Shown in pieces: positions 22,001-64,000 of a stretch of DNA of 64,000 nucleotides. The notes beneath the pieces were generated by a model. The model saw only the letters and a program-made list of their open reading frames with translations, made no database searches and was not told the origin of the DNA. Origin of the DNA: Halichondria panicea (lineage: Eukaryota > Porifera > Demospongiae > Suberitida > Halichondriidae). The stretch covers positions 4,842,169 through 4,906,168 of the forward strand of contig NC_087386.1 of NCBI RefSeq assembly GCF_963675165.1. The letters run 5' to 3'. The translations under genes were made by a program, and so were the position numbers. How positions within the stretch are numbered: position 1 is the stretch's first letter; each line of letters starts with the position of its first letter.

Positions 22001-23794
22001 ATGAGTTCAAAGACGTTCCAAAGCAAAGTTATTATTGTAATAGCAGTCCTACTGTTGTATGCCAGTTCCATACATTGTCAATGTCCTGAAACACAAGCTA
22101 GCACTCAACTACATAGTTGTAAAGCAGACACTGATTGTCTGCCATGGACCGAATGCAATAATACGAAGTGCATTTGCAAGGACTTCGAGCTAATGAATAA
22201 CATTAGATGTGACAAAGATACACTGCAGCTGTCTGTTATCCGTTGTCACTGTGTGACGTTGGACAATGTGACCAATCAATTGATTCAAGGGAATTGCATT
22301 GAAAACTGTGAGAATAATTATTACAAAAGTGACTACCTTTCATTGCCAAAAAATGTTTCCCAACTGAACCAGTTCATGTGTGAGAAGAGATGGAACAGAA
22401 CAGGAAGACTGTGTGGGAAGTGTCTACCTGGACACTCTCCATTGGCTTACTCTTTCGACGTGAGATGTGTGAAGTGCCCAGAAGAGAACAGAAATATCTG
22501 GAAGTACATTCTTGTGGCTTTTGGTCCACTTACAATATTTTATTTTGCGATTGTATTCTTCAAGATTAATGTAACTTCTTCTCATCTCCATGGCTACGTT
22601 ATTTTCAGCCAGATAATATCCACACCTGCATTTACACGAGTTGTTAAAATCTACAGTCAAAATCACTCTGAATCGAAGGTTCCAATTCAAATAGTTGGAC
22701 TGATGTACGGAATTTGGAATTTGGATTTTTTCCGAATTCTTGATTTAGACATTTGTCTTGATGTTTCCATACTCACAGTCTTAGCTCTGGACTATGCAGT
22801 GGCTATCTACCCACTACTGTTGACTGTTATCTCGTACATATTGATCGAGCTACACGCTAGAAACTTTAGACTAGTAGTTATCTTGTGGAGACCATTTCGC
22901 TACCTGATTTCACTTGTTCGAAAAAACTGGGACAGTAAGACTACAGTAATTGATGCTTATGCAACTTTTTTTGTGCTCTCCTATACCAAGTTCTTTTGTG
23001 TATCAGCTGACCTACTAATTCCAGTAAGAGCTTACAGCATCACAAACAACAACAGTACTTGGGTGCTGTACAATGATGCTACCATCGAGTACTTCGGGAG
23101 TGAACATATTCCATATGCTGTCCTAGCAATTACCTGCTCTGGGTTACTGATCATAGCAACAACTTTTCTTCTTTTCTATCAACTGAAGTGTTACAAAAAT
23201 GCTTTGAACTGCTGCAAAATCGAGGGTAGAATAATCCATGTACTGATGGACTCTTTTCAGGGTTGCTATAAAAACGGAACAGATGGAACACGAGACTACC
23301 GCTGGTTTGCAGCGATGCCTTTGGTTGGTATCATTTCACTGACTCTAATCTATGCTATGACACTGGACGGGAATGCTAATTCATATGCAGTACTCATAAC
23401 TGTAATCCTCATTGTACTTACAGCAACTATTCAACCATACAAGACTCACTTATCAAAGTACGCTAAAATTGACATTATTTTTTGGGCTTTTTTGGCAGCT
23501 GTTTATAGTATGGGAAATGCCACAGACTTTCCAAGTTTAAAATCAACCGTTTTCCTTAGAGTAAGCAATGTACTCCGAGTTGTTGCGGCAATCATTCCAC
23601 TAATATACATGACCTGCCTAACTGTCTACTGGATGCTGTCAAGAATGAGAAAAATGAACACACTCATCAGTCGTATCAGAGCGTGGAGGCAAGGCTACAT
23701 GAACACTGACAATGGCTTAGAGGAAGATCTACCAGACAGAATAGAAAATCCAGACAGATACATACTTCATAATACTGCAAGCTTAGAGTATTAA
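22001..23794 (+). CDS. CRMT-1: Cys-rich ectodomain multi-transmembrane protein
   Basis: Intact single-exon ORF, 597 codons; ATG after AATC. Signal peptide about 1-27 (hydrophobic VIIVIAVLLLYASSIHC). An EB/EGF-like Cys cluster follows (CKADTDCLPWTECNNTKCIC), then HCVTLDNVTNQLIQGNC and the signature CEKRWNRTGRLCGKCLPGH. The first membrane helix starts at NIWKYILVAFGP, followed by seven or eight more hydrophobic stretches including LDYAVAIYPLLLTV. Conserved loop motifs are DSFQGCYKNGT and RDYRWFA. The basic tail has RIRAWRQGYMNT and ends with SLP-like DLPDRIENPDRY (NPxxY). A close paralogue lies at 25322. I recognise the architecture but no named function; a surface receptor or channel is inference. 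An AATAAA signal lies near 23838. Confidence 0.9.
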   Translation: MSSKTFQSKVIIVIAVLLLYASSIHCQCPETQASTQLHSCKADTDCLPWTECNNTKCICKDFELMNNIRCDKDTLQLSVIRCHCVTLDNVTNQLIQGNCIENCENNYYKSDYLSLPKNVSQLNQFMCEKRWNRTGRLCGKCLPGHSPLAYSFDVRCVKCPEENRNIWKYILVAFGPLTIFYFAIVFFKINVTSSHLHGYVIFSQIISTPAFTRVVKIYSQNHSESKVPIQIVGLMYGIWNLDFFRILDLDICLDVSILTVLALDYAVAIYPLLLTVISYILIELHARNFRLVVILWRPFRYLISLVRKNWDSKTTVIDAYATFFVLSYTKFFCVSADLLIPVRAYSITNNNSTWVLYNDATIEYFGSEHIPYAVLAITCSGLLIIATTFLLFYQLKCYKNALNCCKIEGRIIHVLMDSFQGCYKNGTDGTRDYRWFAAMPLVGIISLTLIYAMTLDGNANSYAVLITVILIVLTATIQPYKTHLSKYAKIDIIFWAFLAAVYSMGNATDFPSLKSTVFLRVSNVLRVVAAIIPLIYMTCLTVYWMLSRMRKMNTLISRIRAWRQGYMNTDNGLEEDLPDRIENPDRYILHNTASLEY

Positions 23795-25321
23795 CAGAGA
23801 AAGTATACACTTTGATAAAAACAAACTAGTATGCAAGAATAAAGACTTGCCAATGGGCTGATTGTAGAACAATGACATACAGTAGTTAAGGCAAAAAGCT
23901 GTAGTGAGTATTATAATTTATGTATACAGTATGATTTAGCAAAAATATTTGTGCCTAGTAAGAATACCATGCACGGTGAAAACAGAAGTCATTTGTTGTA
24001 TTGAACAGCTTGCTAGTATAGTGGGCGAAGATTGGCACTGCCTCACAGCTACAAAATAACTGTGTGCCTGAAAGAACATTCATAGAAAAACTTTACTATA
24101 AACACTGGAAAAACATTTGCAGTGCTTTAGTGTTCATCAGAATTTGCTGGGGTAAGGACCAAAATACCAAAGCGGGAAAGAGCCATAATTATGTCAATCC
24201 AACACAACGTCAGATTATGATAATGCCATAACACGGTCTACTTAGTATACGTTTCATCAACCCCTATACACCACCCACACACACACACCACACCCCCTCC
24301 CTAGTTCTGTGTGGGAGACTTGGTCTATTCCTCCATTGCCTCGAGGTGTACATTGTCAGATAAATTCAAACAAAATTCATACTCATTGTTGACTCTAACT
24401 GTGTAGTGTGCAATAGGCATGGGATTAATAGCACGAGTAACAAGCAATAGCTAATTTGCCGAGTGCTATTTACCTTGCCATTGCTTGTGTTATATGAGTG
24501 CTATTAATCTCTTATTGTATTGATTTCTCGTTTAAAATGCAGTTTTCGGTAGTTTTAATAACATTTTCAGCTGCAGCCATTTTCGAAAACAAGCCCCTGT
24601 GTAATTACTCGCTTGACGACGTGCAATTACTGATACGGGATTAATAATTGCTCTACAAGTTCCAGTGCATGCACTAATCATTTATATAGCACATCATACG
24701 ATTATATATACAATGAGTGCATGTCATGCATGTGTGTTATGAGTATCATTTGCTTTGGACTGTGTACACAATGTGACATTGTGAGGGATTGACATGTGGC
24801 TCCTCTCCCGCTTCAATTTTTAGTGCGTCTCAATCAATCCTATATAGCAACTTGCACATATACCAATTTTTATATACCAATTTTTTCTAGGCTATGCAAG
24901 CAATAACTGCACTGAATTCATACATGCTCATGATGGTTTCACAGTGTACATATCTATATGTACATTGTATGAACTATAGTGCATGACAGCAATTAATGAC
25001 CACATGAGCAACAGTTGTTCATTTTCTACTTACAATTATTGAAAAAATGTTACTTAATGTATCAAAGGTGTTTGTGTAAGGTTCATGTTACACCATGCAG
25101 TGGGACGGACACAAGTGGGAGCTAGGTAAGTATACTTAAAATTAATGTGTTGAATTTCACCACACATGCAAGTGGGCATGCAGTGATTATACTTTTGATG
25201 TGTTGTTTTTCCGTTGATGTGAATTTATCCAAATATGCCTAAACACGCCGCTGTACTGTCATAACACACAGTAAACATCATTCTAGATATGTAGTGTGTA
25301 CGCACTAGAATTATTGAAATC
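23795..25321. other. Intergenic between CRMT-1 and CRMT-2: hairpin and duplicated flank
   Basis: 24422-24509 is a strong inverted repeat (GGATTAATAGCAC... arms of about 32 bp with AAGCAATAGC / GCCATTGCTT). The phrase AAAGCGGGAAAGAGCC at about 24170 recurs downstream of CRMT-2 at about 27625, showing that the 3' flank was duplicated with the gene. No gene is seen. Confidence 0.6.
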
Positions 25322-27115
25322 ATGAGTTCAAAGACAATCAAAAGCAAAGTTAGTATTGTATTAGCAATCCTATTCTTGTATGCCAGTTCCATACATTGTC
25401 AATGTCCTGAAGCACAAGGTAGCACATGTAGTTGTAAAGCAGACGCTGATTGCCTGCCATGGACCGAATGCAATAATACGAAGTGCATATGCAAGGACTT
25501 CGAGTTAATGAATCATGATAAAACCCTTAGATGTGACAAAGATACACTGCAGCTGTCTGTTACCCGTTGCCACTGTGTGACGTTGGACAATGTTACCAAT
25601 CAGTTGGTTCAAGGGAATTGCATTGAAAACTGTGAGAATAATCATCACAAAAGTGACTACCTTTCATTGCCAAAAGATGTATCCCAACTAAACCAGTTCA
25701 TGTGTGAGGAGAGGTGGAACAGAACAGGAAGACTGTGTGGGAGGTGTCTACCTGGACACTCTCCACTGGCTTACTCTTTTGACGTGAGATGTGTGAAATG
25801 CCCTGAGGGGAACAGAAATATCTGGAAATATATTCTTGTGGCTTTTGGTCCACTTACAGTGTTTTACTTTGTGATCGTATTTTTCAAGATCAATGCAACT
25901 TCTTCTCAACTACATGGCTACGTTATTTTCAGCCAGATAATATCCACACCTACATTTTCTCGAAATGTTACAATTTACAGTCAAAATCACTCTGAGTCAA
26001 AGGTCCCAATTCAAATAATTGGACTGATGTACGGAATATGGAACTTGGACTTTTTTCGATTTCTTGATCTACATATTTGTCTTGATGTGTCCACACTCAC
26101 AGTCTTAGCTCTGGACTATGCAGTGGCTATCTACCCACTACTGTTAACAGTTGTGTCTTACATCTTGATCAAGCTACATGATAGAAACTTCAGACTAGTA
26201 GTCATCTTGTGGATACCATTTCGCTACCTCTTTTTACTTGTTCGAAAAAACTGGGACAGTAAGACTACAGTAATTGATGCATTTGCAACCTTCTTTGTGC
26301 TCTCTTATACCAAGTTCTTTTGTGTATCAGCTGACCTACTAATTCCAGTAAGAGCTTACAGCATCACAAACGACAACATTACTTGGGTGCTGTACAATGA
26401 TGCTACCATCGAGTACTTCGGGAGTGAACATATTCCATATGCTGTCCTAGCAATGACCTGCTCTGGGTTACTGATCATAGCAACAGGTTTTCTTGTTTTC
26501 TATCAACTAAAGTGTTGCCAACATGTTTTGAATTGCTGCAAAATCAAGAATCGAATAATCCATGTACTGATGGACTCTTTCCAAGGTTGCTATAAGAACG
26601 GAACAAATGGAACACGAGACTACCGCTGGTTTGTAGCGGTGCCTTTGATAGGTCGCATTTCACTGACTCTAACTTATGCTATGTTACTGGACAGCAATGC
26701 TAATTCATTTTTAGGACTACTAATTGTAATCCTCATTGTACTTACAGCAACTATTCAACCATACAAGAAACATTTATCACTATACGCTAAAATTGATATC
26801 ATTTTTTGGGCTTTCTTGGCAGCTGTCTATACTATTGGAGACGCCGCCAACTTCCCAAGTTTAAAATCAAACCTTTTTCTTAAAATAAGCAATGTACTTC
26901 GAGTTGTCGTGGCAATCATCCCACTCATCTACATGACCGGCCTTACTGTCTACTGGATGCTGTCAAGAATGAGAAAAATGACCACGCTCATCAGTCGAAT
27001 CAGAGCGTGGAGGCAAGGCTACATGAACACTGTCAACGGCTTAGAGGAAGATCTACCAGACAGAGTAGATAATCCAGACAGATACAGCCTTCACAATCCT
27101 AGCATTAACACATGA
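25322..27115 (+). CDS. CRMT-2: Cys-rich ectodomain multi-transmembrane protein
   Basis: Intact 597-codon single exon, the closest relative of CRMT-1 (same signal peptide type, YASSIHCQCPE). Ectodomain CKADADCLPWTECNNTKC and signature CEERWNRTGRLCGRCLPGH. The membrane region and the tail RIRAWRQGYMNTVNG with DLPDRVDNPDRY are nearly the same as CRMT-1. The main differences sit in the stretch after the first helix (for example TFSRNVTIYSQNHSESK against AFTRVVKIYSQNHSESK) and in the last membrane segments. The start is chosen by alignment with CRMT-1 (AATC before ATG in both). An AATAAA signal lies near 27151. Function unknown. Confidence 0.9.
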   Translation: MSSKTIKSKVSIVLAILFLYASSIHCQCPEAQGSTCSCKADADCLPWTECNNTKCICKDFELMNHDKTLRCDKDTLQLSVTRCHCVTLDNVTNQLVQGNCIENCENNHHKSDYLSLPKDVSQLNQFMCEERWNRTGRLCGRCLPGHSPLAYSFDVRCVKCPEGNRNIWKYILVAFGPLTVFYFVIVFFKINATSSQLHGYVIFSQIISTPTFSRNVTIYSQNHSESKVPIQIIGLMYGIWNLDFFRFLDLHICLDVSTLTVLALDYAVAIYPLLLTVVSYILIKLHDRNFRLVVILWIPFRYLFLLVRKNWDSKTTVIDAFATFFVLSYTKFFCVSADLLIPVRAYSITNDNITWVLYNDATIEYFGSEHIPYAVLAMTCSGLLIIATGFLVFYQLKCCQHVLNCCKIKNRIIHVLMDSFQGCYKNGTNGTRDYRWFVAVPLIGRISLTLTYAMLLDSNANSFLGLLIVILIVLTATIQPYKKHLSLYAKIDIIFWAFLAAVYTIGDAANFPSLKSNLFLKISNVLRVVVAIIPLIYMTGLTVYWMLSRMRKMTTLISRIRAWRQGYMNTVNGLEEDLPDRVDNPDRYSLHNPSINT

Positions 27116-28056: not shown

Positions 28057-28195
28057 TTATGCAGTGCATGGCTATTTACCCACTATACTGTTGACTGTTG
28101 TCTCATACATCTTGATCAAGCTATACATGCTAGAAACTTCAGGCTATAGTAGTCGTCCTGTGGAGACCATTTTGCTACCTCCTTTTACTTGTTTG
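28057..28195 (+). pseudogene. CRMT fragment (central membrane segment)
   Basis: Nucleotides match the CRMT block encoding AVAIYPLLLTVVSYILIKLH...NFRLVV (GCAGTGCATGGCTATTTACC, TTGACTGTTGTCTCATACAT, TTGTGGAGACCATTT-like CCTGTGGAGACCATTTTGCT). It has small insertions and a frame break, and no flanking gene parts. It is a relic of another array member. Confidence 0.85.
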
Positions 28196-28832: not shown

Positions 28833-28834
28833 AG

Positions 28835-30595
28835 ATAGATATATCTGGAAGGTGGATCCAGAATAGTCGCTGCTCAGAACAAGCTGACTGTCCACCATGG
28901 GCAGAGTGCAACAACAGCTACTGTGTTTGTCTGAAAAAGTTAAAGAACTTTAATACTGTCCAATGTGATAAGGATACACTGGAACTGTCAGTTATTAAAT
29001 GCCACTGTGTGACATTTGATAGTGAAAATGGAGAATTATTCGAAGGAAATTGTATTGAAAACTGTCAAAATCAGCGCCAATATATGCCACTACCACTAAA
29101 TGTTTCCGAACTGAACCAGTTAATGTGTGAGGAGAGGTGGAACAGAACAGGAAGACTGTGTGGGAGGTGTCTACCTGGACACTCTCCACTGGCTTACTCT
29201 TACGACATAAGGTGTGTGAAATGCCCTGAGGGGAACAGAAACATCTGGAAGTACATTCTCGTGGCTTTTGGTCCACTTACAGTATTTTACTTTTTAATAG
29301 TTTTTCTAAAAATTAATGTAACTTCATCATATCTCCATGGATACCTGATATACAGTCAAATCGTGTCAGCACGAACTACCCAACGCAAAACTGTTCTGTT
29401 TGAACAAAATCACCCAGAGTGGAAAATTCCTATTCAAATGATCGCAGTAGTATATTCAATATGGAACCTAGACTTCTTCAGAGGTCTCTACCCTGACATT
29501 TGTCTTGATGTGTCCACACTCACAGTTTTAGCTCTGGACTATGCAGTGGCTATCTACCCGCTACTGTTGACCGTTATCTTCTACATCTTGATCGAGTTAC
29601 ATGCTAGAAACTTCAGACTAGTAGTCATCTTGTGGAGACCATTTCGGCGCGTCTTCACTCTTGTTCGTAGAAACTGGGACAGTAGAACCACAGTCATTGA
29701 CGCTTACGCTACTTTCTTTATACTTTCCTACAACAAGTTTCTTTGGGTGTCTGGTGACCTACTTACTCCAATTAGAGCCCACAGTATCAACAATGAAAGT
29801 GACAAGTGGGTGTTGTATACTGATGCTTCGGTTGAATATTTTGGATATGAACATATTCCCTATGCTATTCTAGCAATGGTCGTCTGTCTGTTAGTAACAA
29901 TCATACCAACCTTGTTTCTGATCTTTTACCAGATAAAGTGGTTTCAAAAATTACTCCATTGTTTGAAAATTCGAAGCCAGTTGCTTCGGGCATTGATGGA
30001 TTCGTTTCAAAGTTGTTATAAAGATGGGAGAGAAATTGGAACAAGAGACTACCGCTGGTTTGCAGCTCTGCCTTTGATTGGACGAATTGGCTTGCTCGCA
30101 ACGTATGCCACCAACTTAGATGATATTGCATTGCCATACCTAGTGATGGGTATTGTCTTCATCATAGTTCTTACAGTGATTATTCAACCATACAAAAGTG
30201 AATTATCGAAGTACACAAAAATTGACATTATCTTTTGGGCATTCCTAGCATCTTTTTTAGGATTAGATGAAGCAGTGAGTGACCCAAACCTAAAACCGGT
30301 TACACTAGTAAGAGTAACGACTGTTATTCGAGTTGTTGTGGCAGTCATTCCGTTTTTATGCATGTGTTACGTTGCTGGGTACTGGATTTTCACAAGAATG
30401 CGAAAAATGAAGACATTTATCACTCGAGTGAAAGCCTGGAGAAGGGGCTACATGAACATGGAAAATGACTTTGAGGCATCTCTGCCAGACAGAATCGTTA
30501 ATCCTGAGAATTACGAAGGGGAAAAACTTCATGATCCAATTAGTTCTTTAACCGAAAACGGTTCCTACCAAGATGATACGAACAATACATACTAG
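28835..30595 (+). pseudogene. CRMT-3: 5'-truncated Cys-rich multi-transmembrane gene
   Basis: The frame is open from 28835 (after an in-frame TAG at 28832) to the stop at 30595. The reading begins in the ectodomain (RCSEQADCPPWAECNNSYCVC) and continues through KCHCVTFDSENGELFEGNC, the signature CEERWNRTGRLCGRCLPGH, all membrane segments, DSFQSCYKDG and RDYRWFA. The tail is VKAWRRGYMNMEND with SLPDRIVNPENY. No ATG or signal peptide precedes the ectodomain; the dispersed repeat abuts it instead. Either the gene is a 5'-truncated pseudogene, or an upstream exon is spliced in through the AG near 28832-28834. Everything downstream is intact, so the truncation may be recent. In-frame GTG/ATG codons inside the ectodomain would give a protein without a signal peptide. 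Confidence 0.8.
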
Positions 30596-31563: not shown

Positions 31564-33396
31564 ATGGCTAAAAGCAAAATTGTGATCTATTTGATTATAG
31601 TTACCATACATCTCTTGTCTACAACACTTTCACAAGCTAACCAACAGTTTTCTGATGGAAGTAGAACAAACACGAGTTGTCTGGTGGACACTGACTGCCC
31701 TATTTGGGCTGAATGCAATAACACGAAATGTGTCTGCAAAGAAATGCTACAGAATCACAGAACTGTCCACTGCAGTGAAGAATTACAACTGTCTGTCATT
31801 AGATGCCACTGTGTGACGTATGACAATAGGACTGATGAATTGACAGAAGGAAGTTGTTTTCAGAATTGCGAGAATAATAACAACAAAAATGAGTACCTTC
31901 CATTGCCAAAAGATGTTTCTCAACTAAACCAGTTCATGTGTGAGGAGAGGTGGAACAGAACAGGAAGACTGTGTGGGAGGTGTCTACCTGGACACTCTCC
32001 ACTGGCTTACTCTTACGACATGCGATGTGTGAAATGCCCTGAGGGGAACAAAAATATCTGGAAATACGTTCTAGTGGCTTTTGGCCCTTTAACAGTATTT
32101 TACATGATCGTTTTATTTTGCAGAATTAAGGTCAAATCTAAACATTTCCATGGGTACCTTATTGCAAGTCAAATACTATCAGCACCGGTATTTGTTCGCA
32201 CAGTTTATCTATATTTAGAGCATCATTCAAAGTTGCAGGTCTATATAGTTGTTGGGACCATGTATTCAATGTGGAACCTGGATTTCTTCAGAGGCCTCTA
32301 CCCTGATATATGTCTTAATGTGTCCACATTCACAGTCTTAGCTCTGGACTATGCAGTGGCTATCTACCCACTACTACTGACTGTTGTCTCCTACATCTTG
32401 ATCGAGTTGCATGCTAGAAACTTCAAACTAGCCATTATCTTGTGGAAACCATTCAGGTACCTACTGCAACCAATTTTGAGAGATAGGAATAGCAGAAGAA
32501 CAGTTATTGATGCATTTGCAACATTTTTCCAACTGTCTTTTGTTAAAATGGCTTCCGTCTCAGTAGATCTTCTTACTCCTGTTAGAGCCTATAAACTCAA
32601 CACCAACAGTAGTGCAGCAACCTGGGTGCTATATTATGACACTACTATCGAATACTTTGGGGAAGAACACCTCCCGTCTGCTATGCTTGCACTTCTATTT
32701 CTTTCTCTATTTGTACTTTTACCAATACTGCTACTGATAGTCTACCAGTTTCGCTGGTTTCAGAGACTGCTGAGCTGTCTGAAGCTTCGTCATCAATTGC
32801 TACAGGAGATCATGGAATCATTCCAGAGCTGCTACAAGAATGGAATCGAGCCAGGAACGAAAGACCATAGATGGTTTGCAGCTGTACCAATGGTGGGTCG
32901 GTATACTCTACTTGTAGTATTTGCTTTGATCCTTGAGCCAACATATTTCCTATTTGCAATAGCGATCATCATTTTGGTCATGATACTAATAACAATCGTT
33001 GAACCATACAAGAAACAATTTTCAAATCATGCTCGAACAGATATCGTATTTTGGGGCATCCTGGCTATCTTCTTTGGATTCAATGAGAGTACAATGTACA
33101 ACTCTCTAAGACCTGCTGAATTATTAAGATCATCGCAGGTAATACGAGTAATTGTTGCAGCTTTTCCACTTCTATATATGGTCTGCGTAATATGCTTCCT
33201 CATACTTTCCAAAATCAGAAAAAAAAGAATACTTATTGGACGAATCAGAGCCTGGAGGAGAGGATACGTGAACATTGAGCGTGACTCTGAGGCATCTTTG
33301 CCAGATAGAATGGTAAATCCAGAAAACTATATTAAAGAAGTGAGCCTAGTCGATCCAGATACATACTACACTAATCCATGCAATGCCATTAACTAA
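31564..33396 (+). CDS. CRMT-4: Cys-rich ectodomain multi-transmembrane protein
   Basis: Intact 610-codon single exon, used here as the reference copy. Residues 1-24 signal peptide (IVIYLIIVTIHLLSTTLSQA). Ectodomain 25-163 with 15 Cys (39, 45, 51, 56, 58, 70, 81, 83, 98, 102, 126, 137, 140, 155, 158). The first five Cys form an EB/EGF-like C-x5-C-x5-C-x4-C-x-C cluster, and 137-158 form CGRC...YDMRCVKC. Hydrophobic segments lie at about 165-189, 197-217, 255-282, 312-340, 371-394, 437-457, 460-480, 493-506 and 526-549. The loop MESFQSCYKNG (417-427) is conserved. The tail 557-610 has RIRAWRRGYVNIE and SLPDRMVNPENY. Function unknown; the orientation (ectodomain outside, NPxxY tail inside) is inferred. 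Confidence 0.9.
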   Translation: MAKSKIVIYLIIVTIHLLSTTLSQANQQFSDGSRTNTSCLVDTDCPIWAECNNTKCVCKEMLQNHRTVHCSEELQLSVIRCHCVTYDNRTDELTEGSCFQNCENNNNKNEYLPLPKDVSQLNQFMCEERWNRTGRLCGRCLPGHSPLAYSYDMRCVKCPEGNKNIWKYVLVAFGPLTVFYMIVLFCRIKVKSKHFHGYLIASQILSAPVFVRTVYLYLEHHSKLQVYIVVGTMYSMWNLDFFRGLYPDICLNVSTFTVLALDYAVAIYPLLLTVVSYILIELHARNFKLAIILWKPFRYLLQPILRDRNSRRTVIDAFATFFQLSFVKMASVSVDLLTPVRAYKLNTNSSAATWVLYYDTTIEYFGEEHLPSAMLALLFLSLFVLLPILLLIVYQFRWFQRLLSCLKLRHQLLQEIMESFQSCYKNGIEPGTKDHRWFAAVPMVGRYTLLVVFALILEPTYFLFAIAIIILVMILITIVEPYKKQFSNHARTDIVFWGILAIFFGFNESTMYNSLRPAELLRSSQVIRVIVAAFPLLYMVCVICFLILSKIRKKRILIGRIRAWRRGYVNIERDSEASLPDRMVNPENYIKEVSLVDPDTYYTNPCNAIN

Positions 33397-33569: not shown

Positions 33570-34045
33570 GGTGGGACTGGTAAAAATTATGGCCACATTT
33601 ATACACACATGCAAATTTACAAAGGTCAGACTCGGTAAGAACAACTGTTTTTACATAATTATAGGCAGTTCTTGATAGCAAAACTGTTTTTAGCTTATTA
33701 TTACTTCTCTATTCTAAAAGGCCGTCTAACTGATTGCCTAGTTTTGGGACAAAAAGTAACACGTGTCTGCAATGAAATCTCAGAACCGCACACTGTGAAG
33801 AAAACTATACCGGTTCTATATCTGCCACTGAATGCGTAACATAATAAAGGAGTGATGACCATTTGCATTGAGAATTGTGACAGCGGCTACAGCAAAAGTG
33901 AGTACATTAAGGGTTAGGGTTAGGGTTAGAGTTAGGGTTAGGGTTACCAAATTCCCTATCTAAACCAGTTCATGTGTGAGGAGGTGAAACAGAACAGGAA
34001 GACTGTGTGGGAGGTGTCTACTTGGACACTTACTTAAGACATGCA
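33570..34045 (+). pseudogene. CRMT relic (promoter flank, signal peptide and ectodomain)
   Basis: The upstream stretch CCACATTTATACACACATGCAAA resembles, in part, the 5' flank of CRMT-8 (CCACATTTGCACACACC). CTTGATAGCAAAACTG...CTTATTATTACTTCTCT corresponds to the signal-peptide region, AACACGTGTCTGCAATGAAA to the CVCKE region, and TGCATTGAGAATTGTGACAG to CIENCDS. GTTCATGTGTGAGGAG...AACAGAACAGGAAGACTGTG is the conserved signature with a deletion (GAGGTGAAAC for GAGAGGTGGAAC). Many indels; it ends after CTTGGACACTTAC. It is the N-terminal end of a lost array member. Confidence 0.85.
33908..33946. repeat. Interstitial telomere-type (TTAGGG)n tract
   Basis: Five to six consecutive TTAGGG units (one variant TTAGAG) sit exactly where the CRMT relic should read LPLPxDVS, between GAGTACATT and CCAAATTCCC. 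The flanking coding sequence resumes on both sides. This fits insertion of a telomeric repeat at a repaired break rather than a chromosome end. Confidence 0.9.
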
Positions 34046-34385: not shown

Positions 34386-36169
34386 ATGTGGCTAGTCAAA
34401 CGGTACCTTATCATTCCAATCCTATTGCTCCCAATGGCGTTGGCTAGTTTTAGTGTGAACGACAGTAGAAGTGAGAGCAACATAAATAAGAGCTGCGATG
34501 AATGTCCACCTTGGACACAATGTAATGGCACCAAATGTGAGTGCAAAAAGAGGCTAGAAGATTATCGAGAAGTTAAATGTAATGACCATCTACAGCTGTC
34601 TATCATCCGGTGCAACTGCGTCACATTTGACAATAACTCCAACGACTTAGTAGTAGGTCATTGCATTGAGAATTGTGACAACGGTTACATCAAAAGTGAA
34701 TATCTCCCATTGCCAAATAATGTTTTTCAACTAAACCAGTTCATGTGTGAGGAGAAGTGGAACAGAACAGGACGACTGTGTGGGAGGTGTCTACCTGGAC
34801 ACTCTCCACTGGCTTACTCTTACGACATAAGGTGTGTGAAATGCCCTGAGGGGAACAGAAATATCTGGAAGTACATTCTAGTGGCTTTTGGCCCTTCAAC
34901 AATATTTTATCTCATTATTTTGATTTGTAGAATAAAGGCCACCTCGCTATATCTCCAAGGATACCTTATCTTTTGCCAAATTATAACAGCTCCTCTCTTA
35001 GCTCGAGTTGCAACCAAGTATTTACAGTATCATCAACATTTACGAGTGCCATTGGAAACGATCGGAGCACTGTACACTATCTGGAATCTAGATTTCTTCA
35101 GAGGTCTCTACCCTGACATTTGTCTTGATGTGTCCACACTCACAGTCTTAGCTCTGGACTACGCAGTGGCTATCTACCCACTACTGTTGACTGTTGTCTC
35201 ATACATACTGATTGAGCTACACGCTAGGAATTTCAAACTTCTTGTTCTCCTCTGGAAACCTTTCAGGTACGTACTGAAATAATTTCTGAGAGATTGGAAT
35301 AGCCGAACAACAGTTATAGATGCATTTGCAACATTTTTTCAGCTCTTGTTTGTTAAAATGGCTTCAGTCTCAGTAGACCTTCTACTCCCAGTCAAAGCCC
35401 GCAGTCTCAATAATGGGAATATGACCTGGGTGGTGTACTTTGATGCAAGTATTGAATACTTTAGTGCTGAACACTGTCCCTATGCCATCTTGGCCATACT
35501 ATGCTTTGTGATATTCGTATTTTCACCAATCCTACTATTGTTGATATATCAGTTTCGCTGGTTTCAGAGATTGCTCAGCTGTCTACACTTACGTCATCCA
35601 TTGCTACAAGAGGTCATGGAATCCTTTCAAAGTTGTTACACAAACGGCACTCAACCAGGAACCAAAGATCATAGATGGTTTTCAGCTGTGCCTTTTATTG
35701 GACGCTATCTTTTACTCTTAACATACACATTCATACTTGAGTCAACATTCCTACCGCTAGCGATATCAATTATTATCTTCATCATGATGACAACCATCCT
35801 TGTTCTACCATACAAGAAACAACATGCTACTCATACAAAAATGGATATTGTATTTTGGGGACTTCTTGCAATTTTTTTCTGTTTTGACGAAACCTCAATG
35901 TTTAAATCTCTAAACCACCAGATTTACTCGTAGCATCACAAATACTGATAACTGTTGTGTTATTTACCCCAATGCTCTATTTTGTCTCCATTACTGTCTA
36001 CTTAATACTATCTAGAATCAGTAAAGTGAGGATGGTTGTCAACCGAATACGAGCTTGTAGATGAGGCTATACGAGCATAGAAGAATACGACACCTTTGAA
36101 CCGCACAGACTGATCAACCCAGCGCTGTACAATGAAGAGAGCCTTCAGAACCCTATTATGATACTTTAA
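34386..36169 (+). pseudogene. CRMT-5: Cys-rich multi-transmembrane gene with three disabling lesions
   Basis: A good ATG and signal peptide (LIIPILLLPMALA), a slightly shorter ectodomain start (SCDECPPWTQCNGTKCEC) and the full signature CEEKWNRTGRLCGRCLPGH. Lesions against its paralogues: TAA at 35280-35282, where the fragment at 37948 has CAA (Gln); a one-base deletion near 35910 (AAACCACC for AAAACCACC); and TGA at 36062-36064 in the tail, where others have CGA/GGA-type sense codons (WRRGY). The tail otherwise reads EPHRLINPALYNEE, so the gene decayed after the family tail had evolved. Truncated translation would give 298 residues (ectodomain plus a few helices). Confidence 0.88.
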
Positions 36170-37615: not shown

Positions 37616-38078
37616 CAGTAAAGGCCACCTCGCTATATCTCCAAGGATACATTATCTTTTGCCAAATCATAACAGCTCCTTTCTTAGCTGGAGCTACAAC
37701 CAAGTATTTACAGTCTCACGTGTGCTATTGGAAACAATCGGAGAACTGGACACTATGTGGAACCTGGATTTTTTCAGAGGCCTCTACCCTGACATTTGTC
37801 TTGATGTATCCCCACACTCACAGCCTTAGCTCTGGACTATGCAGTGGCTATCTACCCACTACTGTTGACTGTTGTCTCCTACATCTTGATCGAGCTACAT
37901 GCTAAAAATTTCAGACTACTTGTTCTCGTCTAGAAACCATTTAGGTACGTACTGAAACAATTTCTGAGAGATTGGAATAGCAGAACAACAGTCATACATG
38001 CATTTGCAACATTCTTTCAGCTCTCTTTTTTCAAAATGGCTTCGGTTTCAGTATACCTCCTAATCCCAGTCAAAGCGA
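37616..38078 (+). pseudogene. CRMT-6: central fragment of a CRMT gene
   Basis: Starts abruptly at IKATSLYLQGYIIFCQIITAP and runs through the central helices to LIPVKA, matching CRMT-5 and CRMT-8. It has indels (for example TCCCCACACTCACAG) and a stop (CGTCTAGAAACC, where functional copies read TCTGGAAACC). Both gene ends are missing; the 3' break is an inverted repeat arm. It preserves CAA at the position of the CRMT-5 premature TAA. Confidence 0.88.
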
Positions 38079-38080
38079 TT

Positions 38081-39822: not shown

Positions 39823-39911
39823 GCCACAATTGCAAACATACGCAAATTTAAAGCATTAGTTATAGACTCAGTGTAACTACTTCCAGTTTAGTGAAGGCAA
39901 TTCATACAAAA

Positions 39912-45325: not shown

Positions 45326-45373
45326 TGGCCAGACTTGGTAGAACATTTTTATTATAGACACATTCAGTAAAAA

Positions 45374-51345: not shown

Positions 51346-53160
51346 ATGGTCAATACAAAAATAGTGATCAGTTTGATTATAGCTGCCTTATTTCTCTGTT
51401 CTACAAGGGCTTCAGCAGCTAACCAACAGTTTTCTGAAATAACAAACACGAGTTGTCTAGTGGACACTGATTGTCCCATTTGGGCTGAATGCAATAACAC
51501 GAAATGTGTCTGTAAAGAAATGTTACGGAATCTTAGAACTGTGCGTTGCAAAGAAAATAATCTACAACTATCCGTTATCTCATGTCACTGTGTGACGTAT
51601 GACAATAGGACTGATGAACTGTTTGAAGGAAAATGCATCGAGAATTGCGACAACGGAGTAGGCAAAAGTTACTTTCCATTGCCAACAGATATTACCCAAT
51701 TGAACCAGAACATGTGTGAGAAGAGATGGAACAGAACAGGAAGACTGTGTGGGAGGTGTCTACCTGGACACTCTCCACTGGCTTACTCTTACGACATGAG
51801 GTGTGTGAAATGCCCTGAGGGGAACACAAATATCTGGAAGTACATTCTTGTAGCTTTTGGCCCTTCAACCATCTTTTATTTCGTTATTCTGACTGGCAGA
51901 ATAAAGTCCACCTCGCTATATCTCCATGGATACCTTATCTTTAGCCAGATCATAACAGCCCCTATTTTAGCTCACGAGGTTATTCAGTTTTTGAAGACTC
52001 ACCAAAATATACAGGTTTTATTTGGAACGGTCGCAACACTGTACTCAATGTGGAACCTTGATTTCTTCAGAGACCTCTACCCTGATATTTGTCTTGATGT
52101 GTCCACACTCACAGTCATAGCTCTGGACTATGCAGTGGCGATCTATCCACTACTGTTGACTGTTGTCTCCTACATATTGATTGAGCTACATGATAGAAAC
52201 TTAAGACTAGTAGTTAACTTGTGGAAACCATTTCATTACCTCTTTTCACATTTTCGGAGAAACTGGGAAAGCAGAACTACTGTAATAGATGGGTTCGCAA
52301 CATTCTTTCAGCTTTCGTTTGTTAAAATACTTTCAGTATCAGTGTATCTCCTAATCCCAGTCAAAGTCTACAATCTCAATAATGGAAATGAGACCTGGGC
52401 AGTGTACTTTGATGCAAGCATTGAATACTTTGGTACCGAACATCGTCCCTATTCTATCTTGGCTATAACATGCTTAGTGGTAATCCATACACCAATTCTG
52501 CTATTGTTGATTTACCAGTTTCGTTGGTTTCAGAAATTACTCAGCTGTCTACACACAAATCATCAGTCGCTACGGGAGGTCATGGAATCCTTCCAAAGCT
52601 GTTACAAGAATGGCACTCAACCAGGAACCAAAGATCTTCGATGGTTTTCAGCTGTGCCTTTTATCGCCCGCTATATTGTACTCTTAACATACGCATTCAT
52701 ACTTGAGTCAACATTCCTACCGCTAGCGATATCAATTATCATCTTCATCATGATCATAACAGTTTGTATCCTACCATACAAGAAAGAACATCGTACTTAT
52801 ATCAAAATGGATATTGTATTTTGGGGAATTCTTGCACTTTTCTTCTGTTTTGACGAAACCATGACGTTCTCTTCTCTAAAATCAAGAGTTTTAATTCAAG
52901 TTTCACAATTCATGAGGTGTTTTATGTTAGCAATGCCAATGCTTTATTTGTTTTGCCTTCCCGGCTACTTGATACTACCTAAAAAAGTGAGAATGGTTGT
53001 CAATCGAATGAGAGCTTGGAGACGACAAGGCTATACGGGCATCGAAGGATCTGATGACCCTGAGCCACATAGACTGAGCAACCCAGAGCAGTACAACAAC
53101 GATACCCCTTTGCCACTGATCAATCCACTGATAAACCCAGGCAAGACAGCACTAAGGTAG
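51346..53160 (+). CDS. CRMT-10: Cys-rich ectodomain multi-transmembrane protein (mosaic copy)
   Basis: Intact 604-codon single exon. The signal peptide matches CRMT-7 (CSTRASAANQQFSEITNTSC). The ectodomain matches CRMT-8 (CKENNLQLSVISCHC). The late helix FILESTFLPLAISIIIFIM matches CRMT-5/9, and the tail (MRAWRRQGYTGIEG, RLSNPEQYNND) matches CRMT-7/8. The signature CEKRWNRTGRLCGRCLPGH is present. Three residues of the usual RIKKK linker are missing (LPKKVRMVV). This block-wise mixture suggests recombination or gene conversion among neighbours. The last intact plus-strand copy before the array inverts. Function unknown. Confidence 0.9.
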   Translation: MVNTKIVISLIIAALFLCSTRASAANQQFSEITNTSCLVDTDCPIWAECNNTKCVCKEMLRNLRTVRCKENNLQLSVISCHCVTYDNRTDELFEGKCIENCDNGVGKSYFPLPTDITQLNQNMCEKRWNRTGRLCGRCLPGHSPLAYSYDMRCVKCPEGNTNIWKYILVAFGPSTIFYFVILTGRIKSTSLYLHGYLIFSQIITAPILAHEVIQFLKTHQNIQVLFGTVATLYSMWNLDFFRDLYPDICLDVSTLTVIALDYAVAIYPLLLTVVSYILIELHDRNLRLVVNLWKPFHYLFSHFRRNWESRTTVIDGFATFFQLSFVKILSVSVYLLIPVKVYNLNNGNETWAVYFDASIEYFGTEHRPYSILAITCLVVIHTPILLLLIYQFRWFQKLLSCLHTNHQSLREVMESFQSCYKNGTQPGTKDLRWFSAVPFIARYIVLLTYAFILESTFLPLAISIIIFIMIITVCILPYKKEHRTYIKMDIVFWGILALFFCFDETMTFSSLKSRVLIQVSQFMRCFMLAMPMLYLFCLPGYLILPKKVRMVVNRMRAWRRQGYTGIEGSDDPEPHRLSNPEQYNNDTPLPLINPLINPGKTALR

Positions 53161-57953: not shown

Positions 57954-59812
57954 TTAAATATTCCTAACATTATTGTATGTTTCTTCTGAGCAAATCGGTT
58001 CTAAAGGTCGATTCCTTTCTTCGTATCGCTGTGGATTCACCAGTCTATCAGGTAAAGAGGTCTCAAAGCCTCGTTCTATGCTCGCATAGCCCTGCCTCCA
58101 GGCTCTGATTCGAGTGATACACATTGTTCCTTTTCTAAGTCGAGACAGTATCCAGTGTATACTGAAGCAGCTAATAATAAGAAGAGGAATAACTAATACA
58201 ATAGCACGCAGAATTAATGAAGCACGGTAAACTGTTTTTGGCCGCAAAGAGTAGAAACTTGTTCCTAGGTTTAGGCTCAGAAACATGCCAAGCAAACCTA
58301 TGAATAATACATCAATTTTTATGTGGTTCATATCCTTGTATGGCTGTACAAGCAGTAGTAGAATTATAATGAAGAAAATGATTACCAAACCAAATATATA
58401 GTAACTTGAGTCGATGGTGGAGGAATAGACTAAAACATTTATGTAGCGTAAAATGTAAAACACAGCTGAAAACCATCTATGATCTTTGGTTCCTGGTTGA
58501 GTGCCATTTGTATAACAACTTTGAAAGGATTCCATGACCTCTCGTAGCAATGGATGACAGATGTGTAGACAGCTGAGTAACCTCTGAAACCAACGAAACT
58601 GATAAATCAACAAAAACAAGATTGGAAGAATCGCAAACATTGTAGAGCACACTAAAGCAAGAATAGCAAATGGCAGATGCTCTTTTCCAAAGTATTCCAT
58701 TGTTGCATCATAATACAATACCCATGTAGTTAAATTACCACCACTAATATCCACTGCTTTCACTGGTGTAAGAAGGTCAACTGAAACGGAAACCATTTTT
58801 GTGAATGATAGTAAGAAAAATGTTGCAAATCCATCTATAACACTAGTTCTGCTTTCCCAGTTTCTACGAATACGTGAAAAGAGGTAACGAAATGGTCTCC
58901 ACAAGATGACTACTAGTCTAAAGTTTCTAGCATGTAGCTCGATCAAGATATACGAGACAACAGTCAACAGTAGTGGGTAGATAGCCACTGCATAGTCCAG
59001 AGCTAAGACTGTGAGTGGGGACACATCAAGACAAATATCCAGGTAGAGGCCTCTGAAGAAATCTAGGTTCCATATTGAATGCAGGTTAAGTATCAAATTA
59101 AGGCTGTATTTAACACTGTGTTCATATCTATTTATGTATTCTGTGATAAGTCTAGCCATAGCAGGTGTTGCAAGTAACTGGCAATAATTAACAAAACCAT
59201 GAAGATGAGAAGAAGTCGCACTGATCTTGAAAAATACCACCACGAAGTAAAATACTGTAAGTGGGCCAAAAGCCACGAGAATGTACTTCCAGATATTTCT
59301 GTTCCCCTCAGGGCATTTCACACACCTCATGTCGTAAGAGTAAGCCAGTGGAGAGTGTCCAGGTAGACACCTCCCACACAGTCTTCCTGTTCTGTTCCTT
59401 TCTTCTCACACATGAACTGGTTTAGTTGGGAAACATTTTTTGGCAACGGAAGGTACTCACTTGTTTTGTAGTCATTTTCACAATTCTCAATGCAGTATCC
59501 TTCAACTAACACATTAGTCATATTGTCATACGTCACACAGTGGCATCTAATAACAGATAGTTGTAGATTTTCTTCGCAGTGTACTGTTTGGAGCTTCTGC
59601 AGAACATTTTTGCAGACACATTTCGTGTTATTACATTCGGCCCAAGGTGAACAATCGCTACTATCTTTACAAGTATTCTTGACAGCTGTTATTATCCCTT
59701 TGTAGTGATGAAGTGCTTTACGATCCTGAATCCTGTCATGTTGTTGATAAGCCATAGCTACGCAACTAGTAGCTGTGAGTATCAATAACACACTAACTAT
59801 CCTGAAATTCAT
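57954..59812 (-). pseudogene. CRMT-11: Cys-rich multi-transmembrane gene with a single 1-bp deletion
   Basis: ATG at 59812 with signal peptide (VSVLLILTATSCVAMA). Ectodomain CKDSSDCSPWAECNNTKC and HCVTYDNMTNVLVEGYC. Within the signature, GAGAAGAAAGGAACAG lacks one base (others GAAATGGAACAG). The frame breaks at about 59402, just before RTGRLCGRC. After the break all helices and the tail are open to 57954 (RIRAWRQGYASIERG, SLPDRLVNPQRY). This is the only lesion seen, so it is either a very young pseudogene, a segregating allele or an assembly error. It is inverted relative to the main array. Confidence 0.85.
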
Positions 59813-60506: not shown

Positions 60507-62346
60507 TTAAATATTCCCAACATTGCAAATTGGGTCTAAAGGTGGATTCCTTTCTTCGTATCGCTGTGGATTCACCAGTCTATCAGGTAAAGAAGCCTCA
60601 AAGTCTTGTTCTATTCTCGCATAGCCCTGCCTCCAGGCTCTGATTCGAGTGATACACATTTTTGCTTTTCTAAGTCGAGACAGTATCAAGTACGTGATGA
60701 GGCATGTCATACCCACCAGAGGAAGAAGTGCTACAATAACACGAAGTATTCGCGAGGCATGAAAAATTGTCTTTGGTCGTAAAGACTCGAAATTGGTTCC
60801 TTGGTTTATGCTTACAAACACGCCGAGTACTCCCAAAAATAAAATGTCTATTTTGGTACGGTTAGCATCCTTGTACGGTTGAATAAGCGCCATAATTACC
60901 ATAAAAAAGAAAATGAGAACAATTGCAAATGTGAAATAGCTAGAGTCGAGCATCGATGAGTACAAGATAATATTTATGTAGCGCGCAATATAAAACACAG
61001 CTGAACACCATCGAAGATCTTTTGTTCCTGGTTCAATTCCATTCTTGAAGCAGCTCTGGAATGATTCCATGACCTCCTGTAGCAATTGATGACGAAGCTT
61101 CAGACAGCTCAGCAATCTCTGAAACCAGCGAAATTGATAAATCAATAACAACAACATCGGGAGAATCGCAAACAGTGTGGAACATGACAACGCCAAGATG
61201 GCATATGGTAGATGCTCTTTTCCAAAATATTCGATCGTTGCATCATAATATAACATCCATGTCACGTTTACTTTCTCGTTTAGAAGGTTAGCTACTTTCA
61301 CTGGTGTAAGGAGGTCCACTGAGGTGGTGGACATTTTGACAAAAGAAAGAAGAAAGAAAGTTGCAAATGCATCTATTACAGTAGTTCTGCTTTCCCAGTT
61401 TGTGCGGAAACGTGAAAAGAAATAATGAAATGGTCTCCACAAGATGACTACTAGTCGAAAGTTTCTAGCGTATAGCTCAATCAAGATGTAGGAGATAACA
61501 GTCAATAGTAGTGGATAGATAGCCACTGCATAGTCCAGAGCTAAGACTGTGAGTGTGGACACATCAAGACAAATGTCAGGGTAGAGACCTCTGAAGAAAT
61601 CAAGGTTCCAAATGGCATATAATTATGTTTAGAATCAATACAACACTTACTCTTATATCTGCAGTAAGAGTATGGCTGTATGTGGTGACAATTCGAACAA
61701 AAGCAGGTGCTGTAATTAGCTGACTGTAAAATAAAAATCCATGGATATAAGAAGAGGTTGCATTGATCTTTAGCAATAACACGAAAACGTAAAATATTGT
61801 TAGTGGACCAAATGCCATGAGAACGTATTTCCAGATATTTCTGTTCCCCTCAGGGCATTTCACACACCTCATGTCATAAGAGTAAGCCAGTGGAGAGTGT
61901 CCAGGTAGACACCTACCACACAGTCTTCCTGTTCTGTTCCACTTCTCCTCACACATGAACTGGTTCAATTGGGAAACATCTGTTGGCAATGGAAGGTAGT
62001 CACTTTTGTCGTAGCCACTGTCACAATTCTCCACGCATTTCCCTTCAACTAATTTATTAGTTATATTGTCAAACGTCACGCAGTGGCATCTAATAACAGA
62101 CAGCTGTAGTTCTTCACTGCAGTGGACAGATACGAGATTCTGTAGATTTTCTTTGCAGACACATTTCGTGTTGTTACATTTGGTCCAGAATGGACAATCA
62201 ATATCCACTTGACAGTTCTTACCTTCTGTTGTTGCTATTGAAGTATTCTGATTACTGTATTCTTGCATTGCCTCGGCTGAAAGGCTAGCAACCACAGCCA
62301 ATAGGAAAGAAACACCTATTAACATTCGAACTCTGAAACCAAACAT
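60507..62346 (-). pseudogene. CRMT-12: Cys-rich multi-transmembrane gene with a frameshift
   Basis: ATG at 62346, signal peptide (MLIGVSFLLAVVASLSAEA). Ectodomain CQVDIDCPFWTKCNNTKC and HCVTFDNITNKLVEGKC, signature CEEKWNRTGRLCGRCLPGH, then the first helices. Before the conserved IWNLDFFRGLYPDIC motif, AACATAATTATATGCC carries about four extra bases compared with CRMT-11 (near 61610-61625), so the frame breaks. Downstream everything is open to 60507, with tail RIRAWRQGYARIEQD and SLPDRLVNPQRY. The inserted bases create the ATAATTAT motif that is frequent in the window's non-coding DNA. Confidence 0.85.
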
Positions 62347-63614
62347 TCTGAAACTTACAAGTACACATGCAGCTATGGTTCAAGTATACAGTTCTTTGGC
62401 AGATCAAATGTCAGCATGTAGAGAGAAGGGCTCTATATATAGCTATATAGCCAACGCTATAATTCAATTTGCTATGTGTCTTTTTGTACACTGAAATATA
62501 CACTCCTTCTGCATAACTATGAGTACATCTATGGTTTTAGGGATTTATGACAGTACTTCCACCAAACACGAGGGCGGAGCCCATATCAAAACATTGCAAT
62601 GTGAAATGTGAAATTAAAATTTTTACCACCCACTCAAATATTTGTGACGTTTTCGCGTGTTTACAACACGAGGATTCTCATGCTTTAATAAATATATCAC
62701 GTGTTTTAGAGGTAACAAGCTGGTATTAAAAGTTGTACATGCAGTCCATACCGTTTATACACTCTTATTACATATTATAGCCTTGAGGCATGATTTGGTA
62801 AGGGTCGTCATGGTATAAACAACATAATTATAGATATCTCATGCCCATAATGCAACAATCCAAATTGAGTGTAAGAAGGATACAAACGATGTAATGTTGC
62901 AAGCTTCCAACAGTTAGCCAATGAAAATTGGCCCTTTCCCCGTTGAAGCCGTCATAATTATGATTATTATAATATAAGGCACTCAACCAACAACTCGTAC
63001 ATTCTACAAACATTAATTATTCTTCAAAATGTTGGTAAAGTTATTGTCAGAGCAAATCTGGTCAATGTAAAGTCACTTCTTCATAGTATCTACTCATAAG
63101 GGATCACAACGCACAAAAGAGCAAATAATTAATAGAGCAACCATAACAACCTATATACAAGTCACTTTCATATCGCCTTATTGTCTTTGATGTGTTGGGC
63201 AAACAGTGCAATCCGTATACAGGTAGCTAAGAGTCTATCATGTTCCAAACAGTTTTCATTGTTTAAGGAATATTGGGAATAGACGTTAGTACCGTTACAG
63301 ATATAATGTACATGTGCAATCAACTGAGCACTCAAAGCTATAATACGCATGGCCACCTTATCTTAATGACCTATGCATGCATGCAGACACTAAGATTCAG
63401 CGCAACGATAATAGATACTGTTGTGAAGAAGGGTAAAAAAAGTACGGGGGGTGGGCTAGTAGAATGCTCATTGAACAAATAATCATAGTTTGTGTACTAT
63501 AGTGCAAAAAGGTATAACATTTACAATCAAGTATACACAATATTAATAACGCTAGAGGCTACACCACAATTTAAATGTTAACTGAGCACTATAATATAAA
63601 GCATTCAACAACAA
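62347..63614. repeat. Second copy of the segmental duplication
   Basis: 62660-63614 repeats 56940-57953 nearly identically (CATACCGTTTATACACTCTT, GGTAAGGGTCGTCATGGTAT, GAAGAAGGGTAAAAAAAGTA). Small indels distinguish the copies. 62347-62660 is the 5' flank of CRMT-12; I see no gene. Confidence 0.85.
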
Positions 63615-64000
63615 TTAAGGTTGTATAGCCAAGTTCCCAACATTATTGTATGTTTCTTCTGAGCAAATTGGTTCTAAAGGTCGATTCCTTTCTTCGTATC
63701 GCTGTGGATTCACCAGTCTATCAGGTAAAGAGGTCTCAAAGCCTCGTTCTATACTCGCATAGCCCTGCCTCCAGGCTCTGATTCGGGTCATAAACATTGT
63801 TCCTTTTCTAAGTCAAGACAGTATCCAGTGTATACTGAAGCAGCTAATAATAAGAAGTGGAATAGCTACTACAATAGCACGCAGAATTACTGAAGCACGG
63901 TAAACTGTTTTTGGCCGCAAAGAGTAGAAACTTGTTCCTAGGTTTAGGCTGAGAAATATGCCGAGCAAACCTATGAATAATACATCAATTTTTATACGGT
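63615..64000 (-). pseudogene. CRMT-13: 3' end of a Cys-rich multi-transmembrane gene, cut by the window edge
   Basis: Near-identical to the 3' part of CRMT-11. The last coding bases match (RIRAWRQGYASIERG, SLPDRLVNPQRYEERN), but CGA of LSRLRK is TGA (TCTTGACTTAG, about 63815), a nonsense change. A deletion at the end changes the C-terminus to GNLAIQP. The N-terminal part lies beyond the window. Probably a pseudogene; the rest cannot be judged. Confidence 0.8.

What the first reader, a model, noticed from the sequence alone, without database searches (positions are those of the whole stretch)
22001..64000. Tandem, single-exon family of Cys-rich ectodomain multi-TM proteins under rapid birth and death
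Seen: at least 13 recognisable CRMT copies plus small relics in 42 kb, six intact, all intronless, next to an intron-rich housekeeping gene. They share a signal peptide, a 15-Cys ectodomain with the signature WNRTGRLCGRCLPGHSPL, 8-9 hydrophobic segments and a basic tail. Established: single-exon tandem arrays with many pseudogenes are typical of chemosensory and immune-recognition families. Inference: this is an environment-sensing or recognition receptor/channel family. I could not match it to a named family. It is the best candidate here for an undescribed system.
Basis: partly seen in the sequence, partly recalled or inferred. Interest (0 to 1): 0.78.

Follow-up and report, generated by a model that had tools for sequence, protein, structure and literature searches.

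The report
Exploded family of nine-pass surface proteins
An animal genome carries more than a hundred copies, intact and broken, of an uncharacterised membrane protein that appears to have lost a bacterial-adhesin-like outer domain, kept a small cysteine-rich knob and about nine membrane passes, and multiplied into tandem arrays that swap sequence among themselves; its job is unknown but looks like recognition at the cell surface.

Summary
In detail: 13 copies plus relics, six intact, single open frames. The array overruns both window ends and is one of several; I count 121 related loci, 68 full-length open, on 13 contigs (corrected). New: 26 sampled short members form one clade (99/98) beside intronless genes of mostly 1,200-1,700 residues that carry a right-handed beta-helix with Chlamydia-Pmp-type repeats, then the same Cys module and membrane domain (hhalign E 1.6e-40, reversed control 1.4% probability; BLASTP E 2e-55). 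One short subclade keeps what looks like the long proteins' N-terminal cap, so the helix was probably lost. A tail motif [RQ]xx[NDYH]PxxY is in 27 of 27 short and 0 of 12 long proteins. The signature is partly homogenised by gene conversion. Mean dN/dS is 0.30; no region exceeds 1 on the mean, though the first extracellular loop does in 7 of 25 pairs. Pfam and PDB give no membrane-domain match; AlphaFold failed (pLDDT 40-42). Best reading: a helix-less surface recognition receptor family with a tyrosine-motif tail. Function is inferred.

The parts
22001..23794 (+). intact copy, 597 aa
   Evidence: ORF; tblastn
25322..27115 (+). intact copy, 597 aa
   Evidence: ORF; tblastn
28065..28171 (-). 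small relic
   Evidence: 84% DNA match to L001, (orientation as read from that alignment)
28835..30595 (+). long open frame (586 codons) without signal peptide or a start codon ahead of the Cys region; probably decayed
31564..33396 (+). intact copy, 610 aa, reference numbering of this report
   Evidence: ORF; tblastn
33776..34029 (+). relic pieces
34386..36145 (+). broken copy (a stop and a frame change)
37614..38077 (+). fragment (residues about 197-342)
39900..41722 (+). broken copy (a stop and a frame change)
45374..47221 (+). intact copy, 615 aa
   Evidence: ORF
47965..49797 (+). intact copy, 610 aa
   Evidence: ORF
51346..53160 (+). intact copy, 604 aa
   Evidence: ORF
57954..59812 (-). 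broken copy (frame change after the ectodomain)
60507..62346 (-). broken copy
63633..63992 (-). 3' part of a broken copy that continues past the window end
31921..32058 (+). signature tract in the reference copy (residues 120-165), read as a gene-conversion tract
   Evidence: tested as 119-165
32200..32259 (+). variable first extracellular loop in the reference copy (residues 213-232)
   Evidence: mean dN/dS 0.74 over residues 213-234; identity 0.18 in the main clade
33301..33330 (+). cytoplasmic tail motif PDRMVNPENY in the reference copy (residues 580-589)
   Evidence: form [RQ][LIVMF]x[NDYH]PxxY in 27 of 27 short members, 0 of 12 long

Best explanation
The array encodes the beta-helix-less branch of a superfamily of intronless, about nine-pass cell-surface proteins. 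Ancestral members probably display a Pmp-like right-handed beta-helix on a Cys-rich stalk and a membrane domain. One lineage lost the helix, kept the Cys knob, carries a tyrosine-containing cytoplasmic motif, and expanded by tandem duplication, gene conversion and loss. Most likely mechanism (inferred): a surface recognition receptor, in which the Cys knob and variable extracellular loops contact microbial, food or self/non-self ligands, and the tail motif couples the receptor to endocytosis or tyrosine-based signalling. Shown: homology, clade in the sample, copy number, tract-wise homogenisation, purifying selection on average, tail motif. Inferred: nine-pass topology, direction of helix loss, gene conversion as the cause, surface location. 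Not shown: ligand, signalling, expression.
For: Signal peptide-like start, 13 conserved ectodomain Cys, basic loops and tail on one side. Homology to the beta-helix set: hhalign E 1.6e-40 over 468 columns against 1.4% probability for the reversed control; BLASTP E 2e-44 and 2e-55, each for a single comparison. 26 sampled short members are one clade at 99/98. The cap of L009 matches 4 places outside the short arrays; 3 of these 4 were fetched and all 3 are long genes of this type. Beta_helix or Chlam_PMP over cut-off in 7 of 13 long proteins scanned; GGA-type motifs beat all 500 shuffles in 8 of 11 long proteins tested. Tail motif 27 of 27 against 0 of 12. First extracellular loop least conserved in two of three clades, dN above dS in 7 of 25 pairs. 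Mean dN/dS 0.30.
Against: No region has a mean dN/dS above 1, and in the closest pairs the loop is below 1 too, so diversifying selection is not shown. In the third clade another loop (511-526) is the least conserved. The tail motif is NPxxY, not the classical NPxY (recalled), and the strict form PxRxxNPxxY is in 20 of 27. The root of the tree is a midpoint and the tool warns of long branches; the cap matches to long genes have E 0.13 to 0.47 one by one, and shuffle tests of whole N-termini were inconclusive. 6 of 13 long proteins have no beta-helix or Pmp hit over cut-off. No expression data. The membrane fold is unknown, so a channel or transporter is not excluded.
Confidence: 0.45

Rival explanations
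1. Ion channel: the membrane domain forms a cation channel (layout like the fungal Flc/TRP-like proteins: signal peptide, luminal domain, about nine helices, cytoplasmic tail) gated by the ectodomain.
For: Topology N-out/C-in with a weakly hydrophobic, Cys250-bearing segment between TM2 and TM3. The comparison with Flc is recalled, not computed.
Against: No Pfam TRP, PKD or ion-transport match listed at E up to 10 for 10 diverse members (HMMER filters drop most weak matches), none in the PDB.
Confidence: 0.2
2. Adhesion or aggregation protein: long members bind cells or matrix through the beta-helix; short members modulate or compete. No signalling through the membrane domain.
For: Pmp-type repeats in long members; chlamydial Pmps are called mediators of host-microbe interactions (PMC10715098, start of abstract in the search listing).
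Against: About nine conserved helices and a conserved tail motif are more than an anchor needs; the short clade has no helix.
Confidence: 0.17
3. Mostly neutral copy-number drift: one ancestral membrane protein duplicated in unstable regions, without functional diversification.
For: 53 of 121 loci did not meet my full-length-open criterion; no mean dN/dS above 1; parts are homogenised.
Against: 68 full-length open copies, mean dN/dS 0.30 in eight copies tested, and separate arrays on different contigs.
Confidence: 0.13
4. Lipid or small-molecule transporter/scramblase.
For: Multi-pass protein with invariant Pro, Tyr, Asp and Thr in or near the hydrophobic segments.
Against: No family match; large tandem surface families are rarely transporters (general knowledge).
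Confidence: 0.05

Closest known systems
Long beta-helix / Cys / multi-pass genes of the same genome (L030-L041)
   Same: Cys module and membrane domain, single open frame
   Different: All but one examined (L039) carry several hundred further N-terminal residues, beta-helix by Pfam in 7 of 13; they lack the tail motif
Pfam PF24633 (DUF7630)
   Same: Short Cys stretch before TM1; 9 of 147 genome places reach its cut-off in the genome search, though the same kind of protein falls below it in hmmscan (best 23.5 of 27 bits)
   Different: The window proteins score far below (14.6 of 27 bits in one of six); no function recorded
Chlamydial Pmp passenger domains (PF02415)
   Same: GGA(I/V/L) and FxxN-type repeats in long members
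   Different: None of three short ectodomains tested has the GGA motif; Pmps are autotransporters (PMC10715098, abstract start), not helical membrane proteins
Fungal Flc / TRP-like family (recalled)
   Same: General layout: signal peptide, ectodomain, about nine helices, tail
   Different: No sequence match found
Eph receptor Cys-rich region
   Same: Profile match over the signature and Cys spacing, E 1.6-1.9
   Different: Not significant; Eph receptors are one-pass kinases (general knowledge)

Membership tests
Superfamily of the long beta-helix/Cys/multi-pass genes | Homologous Cys module and membrane domain, end to end | tested here: met
   hhalign 100%, E 1.6e-40, 468 columns; reversed control 1.4%; BLASTP E 2e-55
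Superfamily of the long beta-helix/Cys/multi-pass genes | Beta-helix ectodomain | tested here: not met
   No Beta_helix or Pmp hit in the six window proteins or the 25 members of A1; ectodomain about 135 aa, no GGA motif. Read as a derived branch that lost it
DUF7630 (PF24633) | Score over the curated cut-off | tested here: not met
   3 of 25 members show it, best E 0.037
EB module (PF01683) | Score over the curated cut-off | tested here: not met
   10 of 25 members, best E 0.0028; 16.1 bits against 24.3 in a window protein
GPCR | Match to a 7TM family | tested here: not met
   No Pfam 7tm hit; hhalign to two GPCR-like window ORFs 0.1%, to one 0.2%
TRP/Flc channels | Sequence match | tested here: not met
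   None listed at E up to 10
TRP/Flc channels | Channel fold | tested here: inconclusive
   AlphaFold pLDDT 40.1 and 41.9; no fold search run on such models
Chemosensory or immune receptor (functional class) | Expression in sensory or immune cells, ligand | not testable with these tools
   No expression data
Chemosensory or immune receptor (functional class) | Diversifying selection | tested here: inconclusive
   Highest mean region ratio 0.74; dN above dS in 7 of 25 pairs for the loop 213-234, pairs not independent and partly saturated; site models not run

The most novel reading that the evidence does not exclude
A previously unnamed class of nine-pass receptor in an early-branching animal. 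It began as a Pmp-like beta-helix sensor, shed the helix once, fixed a new tyrosine tail motif, and became one of the largest surface-recognition repertoires of the genome, diversified in one loop while conversion keeps the Cys knob uniform.
Probability: 0.3. Interest if true: 0.8.

Novelty: new variant of a known kind. Interest (0 to 1): 0.58.

Why it matters
What cells of simple animals use to tell food, symbiont and self apart is an open question (general knowledge). Here 121 short loci stand beside up to 147 places of the long type (10 fetched, all 10 of the type) in one 131-Mb genome, with a bacterial-adhesin-like ectodomain in long members on a membrane domain that matches nothing over threshold in Pfam or the PDB. 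That is a concrete candidate repertoire. The loss of the helix, the clade-wide tail motif and the homogenised tracts give direct hypotheses to test.

Tried and rejected
Pfam, NCBIfam and PDB sequence searches of single proteins and of three profiles: nothing over threshold for the membrane domain. Relatives in viral contigs and in one genome per bacterial or archaeal species: pattern matches but no confirmed relative; these are viral and prokaryote collections, so this says nothing about other animals. AlphaFold on 12 and 14 window rows: pLDDT 40.1 and 41.9; I ran no fold search on these. Retroposition as the cause of the missing introns: not tested; the long relatives examined have single open frames too (11 of 12 at 1,183-1,682 codons, one at 717; L042, in three frames, apart). 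Constraint on synonymous sites as the sole cause of the uniform tracts: disfavoured, because TM3 is uniform within C10 (0.80) but at background between C10 and C7 (0.41 against 0.41). Against a clean story: the signature is raised between C10 and C7 as well (0.62 against 0.41), and both tracts between C10 and C4 (0.65 and 0.66 against 0.43), so some constraint or older conversion is possible. Shuffle tests of short against long N-termini were mostly inconclusive and partly driven by signal peptides; the cap claim rests and the fetched genes. Papers: ten searches listed no paper on the family; only listings with titles and abstract starts were seen, no paper was opened. That related uncharacterised proteins exist in other animals is my recall, from no call. 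That the genome is a sponge's is a guess from recall.

Rows dropped and counting rules: the tree left out the 45374 copy and L031 because my motif pattern missed them; one search failed for the same kind of reason and was rerun. unites the lists, from which I removed repeats by eye, and 10 of the 88 pattern places that I judged new by eye; it merged two tandem genes at C10:3946818-3950698 by my 300-base rule, so I report 121 loci and 68 full-length instead of the printed 120 and 66. 'Full-length' there means at least 1,550 matched bases in one piece with no stop and does not test the start codon (the frame at 28835 is counted). C12 is counted as two loci though it may be one broken gene. In one search region means leave out pairs whose dS could not be computed (9 to 28 pairs remain per region). 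The 27 short and 12 long proteins are samples. The motif counted (GG[AG][ILVFM]) is a little wider than the Pmp motif.
Full report
Observation. The window lies at G000:C10:4,842,169-4,906,168 of an unnamed 131-Mb genome of 39 contigs. ORF listing and tblastn confirm six intact copies, one long frame without signal peptide, six broken or partial copies, and relics.

Genome-wide size. A protein search with the 31564 protein scored 72 of 440 candidates and listed 72 matches, the weakest at E 1.2e-66. Searches with a distant member (L014) and with L009 scored 75 of 368 and 62 of 329 candidates and added others. A pattern for the conserved GTRD[YC]R..F stretch matched 88 places with 0 in the reversed control. 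Merged, these give 121 loci, 68 of them full-length open, on 13 contigs, with arrays at C5:1.44-1.57 Mb (30 loci), C5:2.16-2.20 Mb (10), C8:4.46-4.72 Mb (29 in two blocks), C10:4.84-4.94 Mb (20) and C7:4.40-4.42 Mb (7). These are lower bounds, since only the best candidates are scored.

Where it comes from. Pfam found only a sub-threshold EB module and DUF7630 in the Cys region. Searching the genome for DUF7630 gave 147 places at E up to 1 from 150 scored of 349 candidates, 9 over the cut-off. I fetched 10 of the 147; each of the 10 has a single long frame (717-1,682 codons) that ends in a Cys module and a hydrophobic multi-pass region, as read by eye. Profile comparison of 11 short against 9 long proteins aligns 468 columns, E 1.6e-40; the reversed control scores 1.4% and a GPCR-like pair 0.1%. 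Three further long genes were found through the N-terminal cap of L009. Two of them, L040 and L041, match the 31564 protein directly (28% and 27% identity, E 2e-44 and 2e-55); the third, L042, lies in three frames. In 7 of 13 long proteins scanned Beta_helix or Chlam_PMP exceeds the Pfam cut-off. GGA-type tetrapeptides beat all 500 shuffles in 8 of 11 long proteins; L037 and L038 are weaker (6 and 38 of 500) and L039 has none; none of three short ectodomains has one.

Polarity. A tree of 37 membrane domains (26 short, 11 long) puts the short proteins in one clade at 99/98, with L040 and L041 as nearest long genes (92/94). The root is a midpoint, and the tool warns of long branches, L035 above all. 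The C5:2.16-Mb subclade has a VYVDxxxGxDxxCW...PCKSL stretch resembling the N-terminus of long proteins, with no helix between it and the Cys module. Of the 7 matches of this stretch outside the subclade, 3 are in the C5 short array and 4 elsewhere (E 0.13-0.47); the 3 of these 4 that I fetched are long genes. Loss of the helix is therefore the likelier direction, not proven.

Anatomy. Averaged hydropathy over 27 short proteins gives a signal peptide, eight strong and two weak peaks. Basic loops (residues 282-313, 392-437, 479-491 and the tail) alternate with acidic ones (245-263, 332-373), and the short loops 216-226 and 510-525 are near neutral, so that nine crossings with N outside and C inside fit. 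Cys250, before TM3, is present in 27 of 27. The tail motif [RQ][LIVMF]x[NDYH]PxxY is present in 27 of 27 short proteins and in 0 of 12 long ones; 20 of the 27 have the strict form PxRxxNPxxY. Identity over residues 580-589 is 0.63-0.71 per clade against 0.31-0.56 before and 0.23-0.54 after it.

Evolution. Over 28 pairs of eight copies the mean dN is 0.30, dS 0.98, ratio 0.30. The first extracellular loop (213-234) has the highest mean ratio, 0.74; dN exceeds dS there in 7 of 25 pairs, all between distant copies, while the closest pairs have about 0.26-0.5. The loop is the least conserved region in two of three clades (0.18 and 0.40), not in the third. In 14 sequences, synonymous identity in the signature (119-165) is 0.88 within C10 against 0.57 elsewhere in the gene, with 36 of 45 pairs at Fisher p<0.001; in TM3 (241-285) it is 0.80, 18 of 45 pairs. 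Between C10 and C7, TM3 is at background (0.41 against 0.41; 0 of 20 pairs) and the signature is raised (0.62; 1 of 20). Between C10 and C4 both are raised (0.65 and 0.66 against 0.43; 0 and 1 of 10 pairs). The C3 copy behaves like C10 (0.86 and 0.80; 8 and 4 of 10); it is an offshoot of the C10 array (86% DNA identity to 22001). A run test with 1,000 permutations found 13 of 91 pairs at p<=0.001; of the 20 pairs at p<=0.01, 9 runs lie in the signature, 6 in TM3-TM4 and 5 elsewhere. Pairs are not independent. I read this as gene conversion within the C10 lineage. Flanking DNA of the six intact copies is hardly alike: upstream only 45374 and 47965 match, downstream two short matches.

Function. 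Nothing found names a function. A signal peptide, Cys-rich ectodomain, variable extracellular loop, Pmp-like relatives, large tandem arrays and a fixed Tyr in an otherwise divergent tail point to a surface recognition receptor with endocytic or tyrosine-based coupling. The channel reading is the main rival and cannot be excluded without a structure. Chlamydial Pmps are described as cell-surface proteins with FxxN and GGA(I,V,L) repeats and as mediators of host-microbe interactions (PMC10715098; start of abstract seen in the listing); that the animal helices do likewise is inference.

Novelty. Ten literature searches listed no description (calls given under tried and rejected). The kind, an expanded tandem surface family, is known; the architecture, the loss of the helix, the tail motif and the membrane domain are, as far as these tools show, undescribed. 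I cannot say how widespread it is in other animals.

Noticed in passing
L019 (C1:8215500-8221500), L020 and L021 (C2): Three dispersed loci share a 2.1-2.5 kb stretch at 98.7-99.2% identity that contains the same 0.8-kb 3' piece of a family gene (80.6-82.4% to L009): a recently mobile element seems to have captured a gene fragment. Ends of the element not determined.
   Followed up: partly
window 2717-3976 and 9870-11060, +: Two GPCR-like 7TM open frames; no Pfam family reached its cut-off. The GPCR label is by eye.
   Followed up: no
window 4125-4727 and 7353-8602, -: Pieces of flavin amine oxidase genes (Pfam hits in 4125-4724 and 8084-8602), by eye two very similar tandem copies, the second split between two frames.
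   Followed up: no
window 19663-20707, -: Pieces of VPS13 (adaptor-binding domain) next to the array; one over, one below the Pfam cut-off.
   Followed up: partly
G000, mostly C6, also C11, C14, C17: The DUF7630 places, presumably the long beta-helix genes, are themselves clustered, above all on C6 (10 of 147 fetched). L040-L042 were not among them, so there are more.
   Followed up: partly
L034:511-5556: A beta-helix gene with 20 GGA-type motifs, many in near-identical repeats (read), suggesting recent repeat expansion within the gene.
   Followed up: no
window 28835-30595, +: 586-codon open frame with TM domain and tail motif but no signal peptide or start codon ahead of the Cys region: recent decay, or a start in an unseen upstream exon.
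   Followed up: partly
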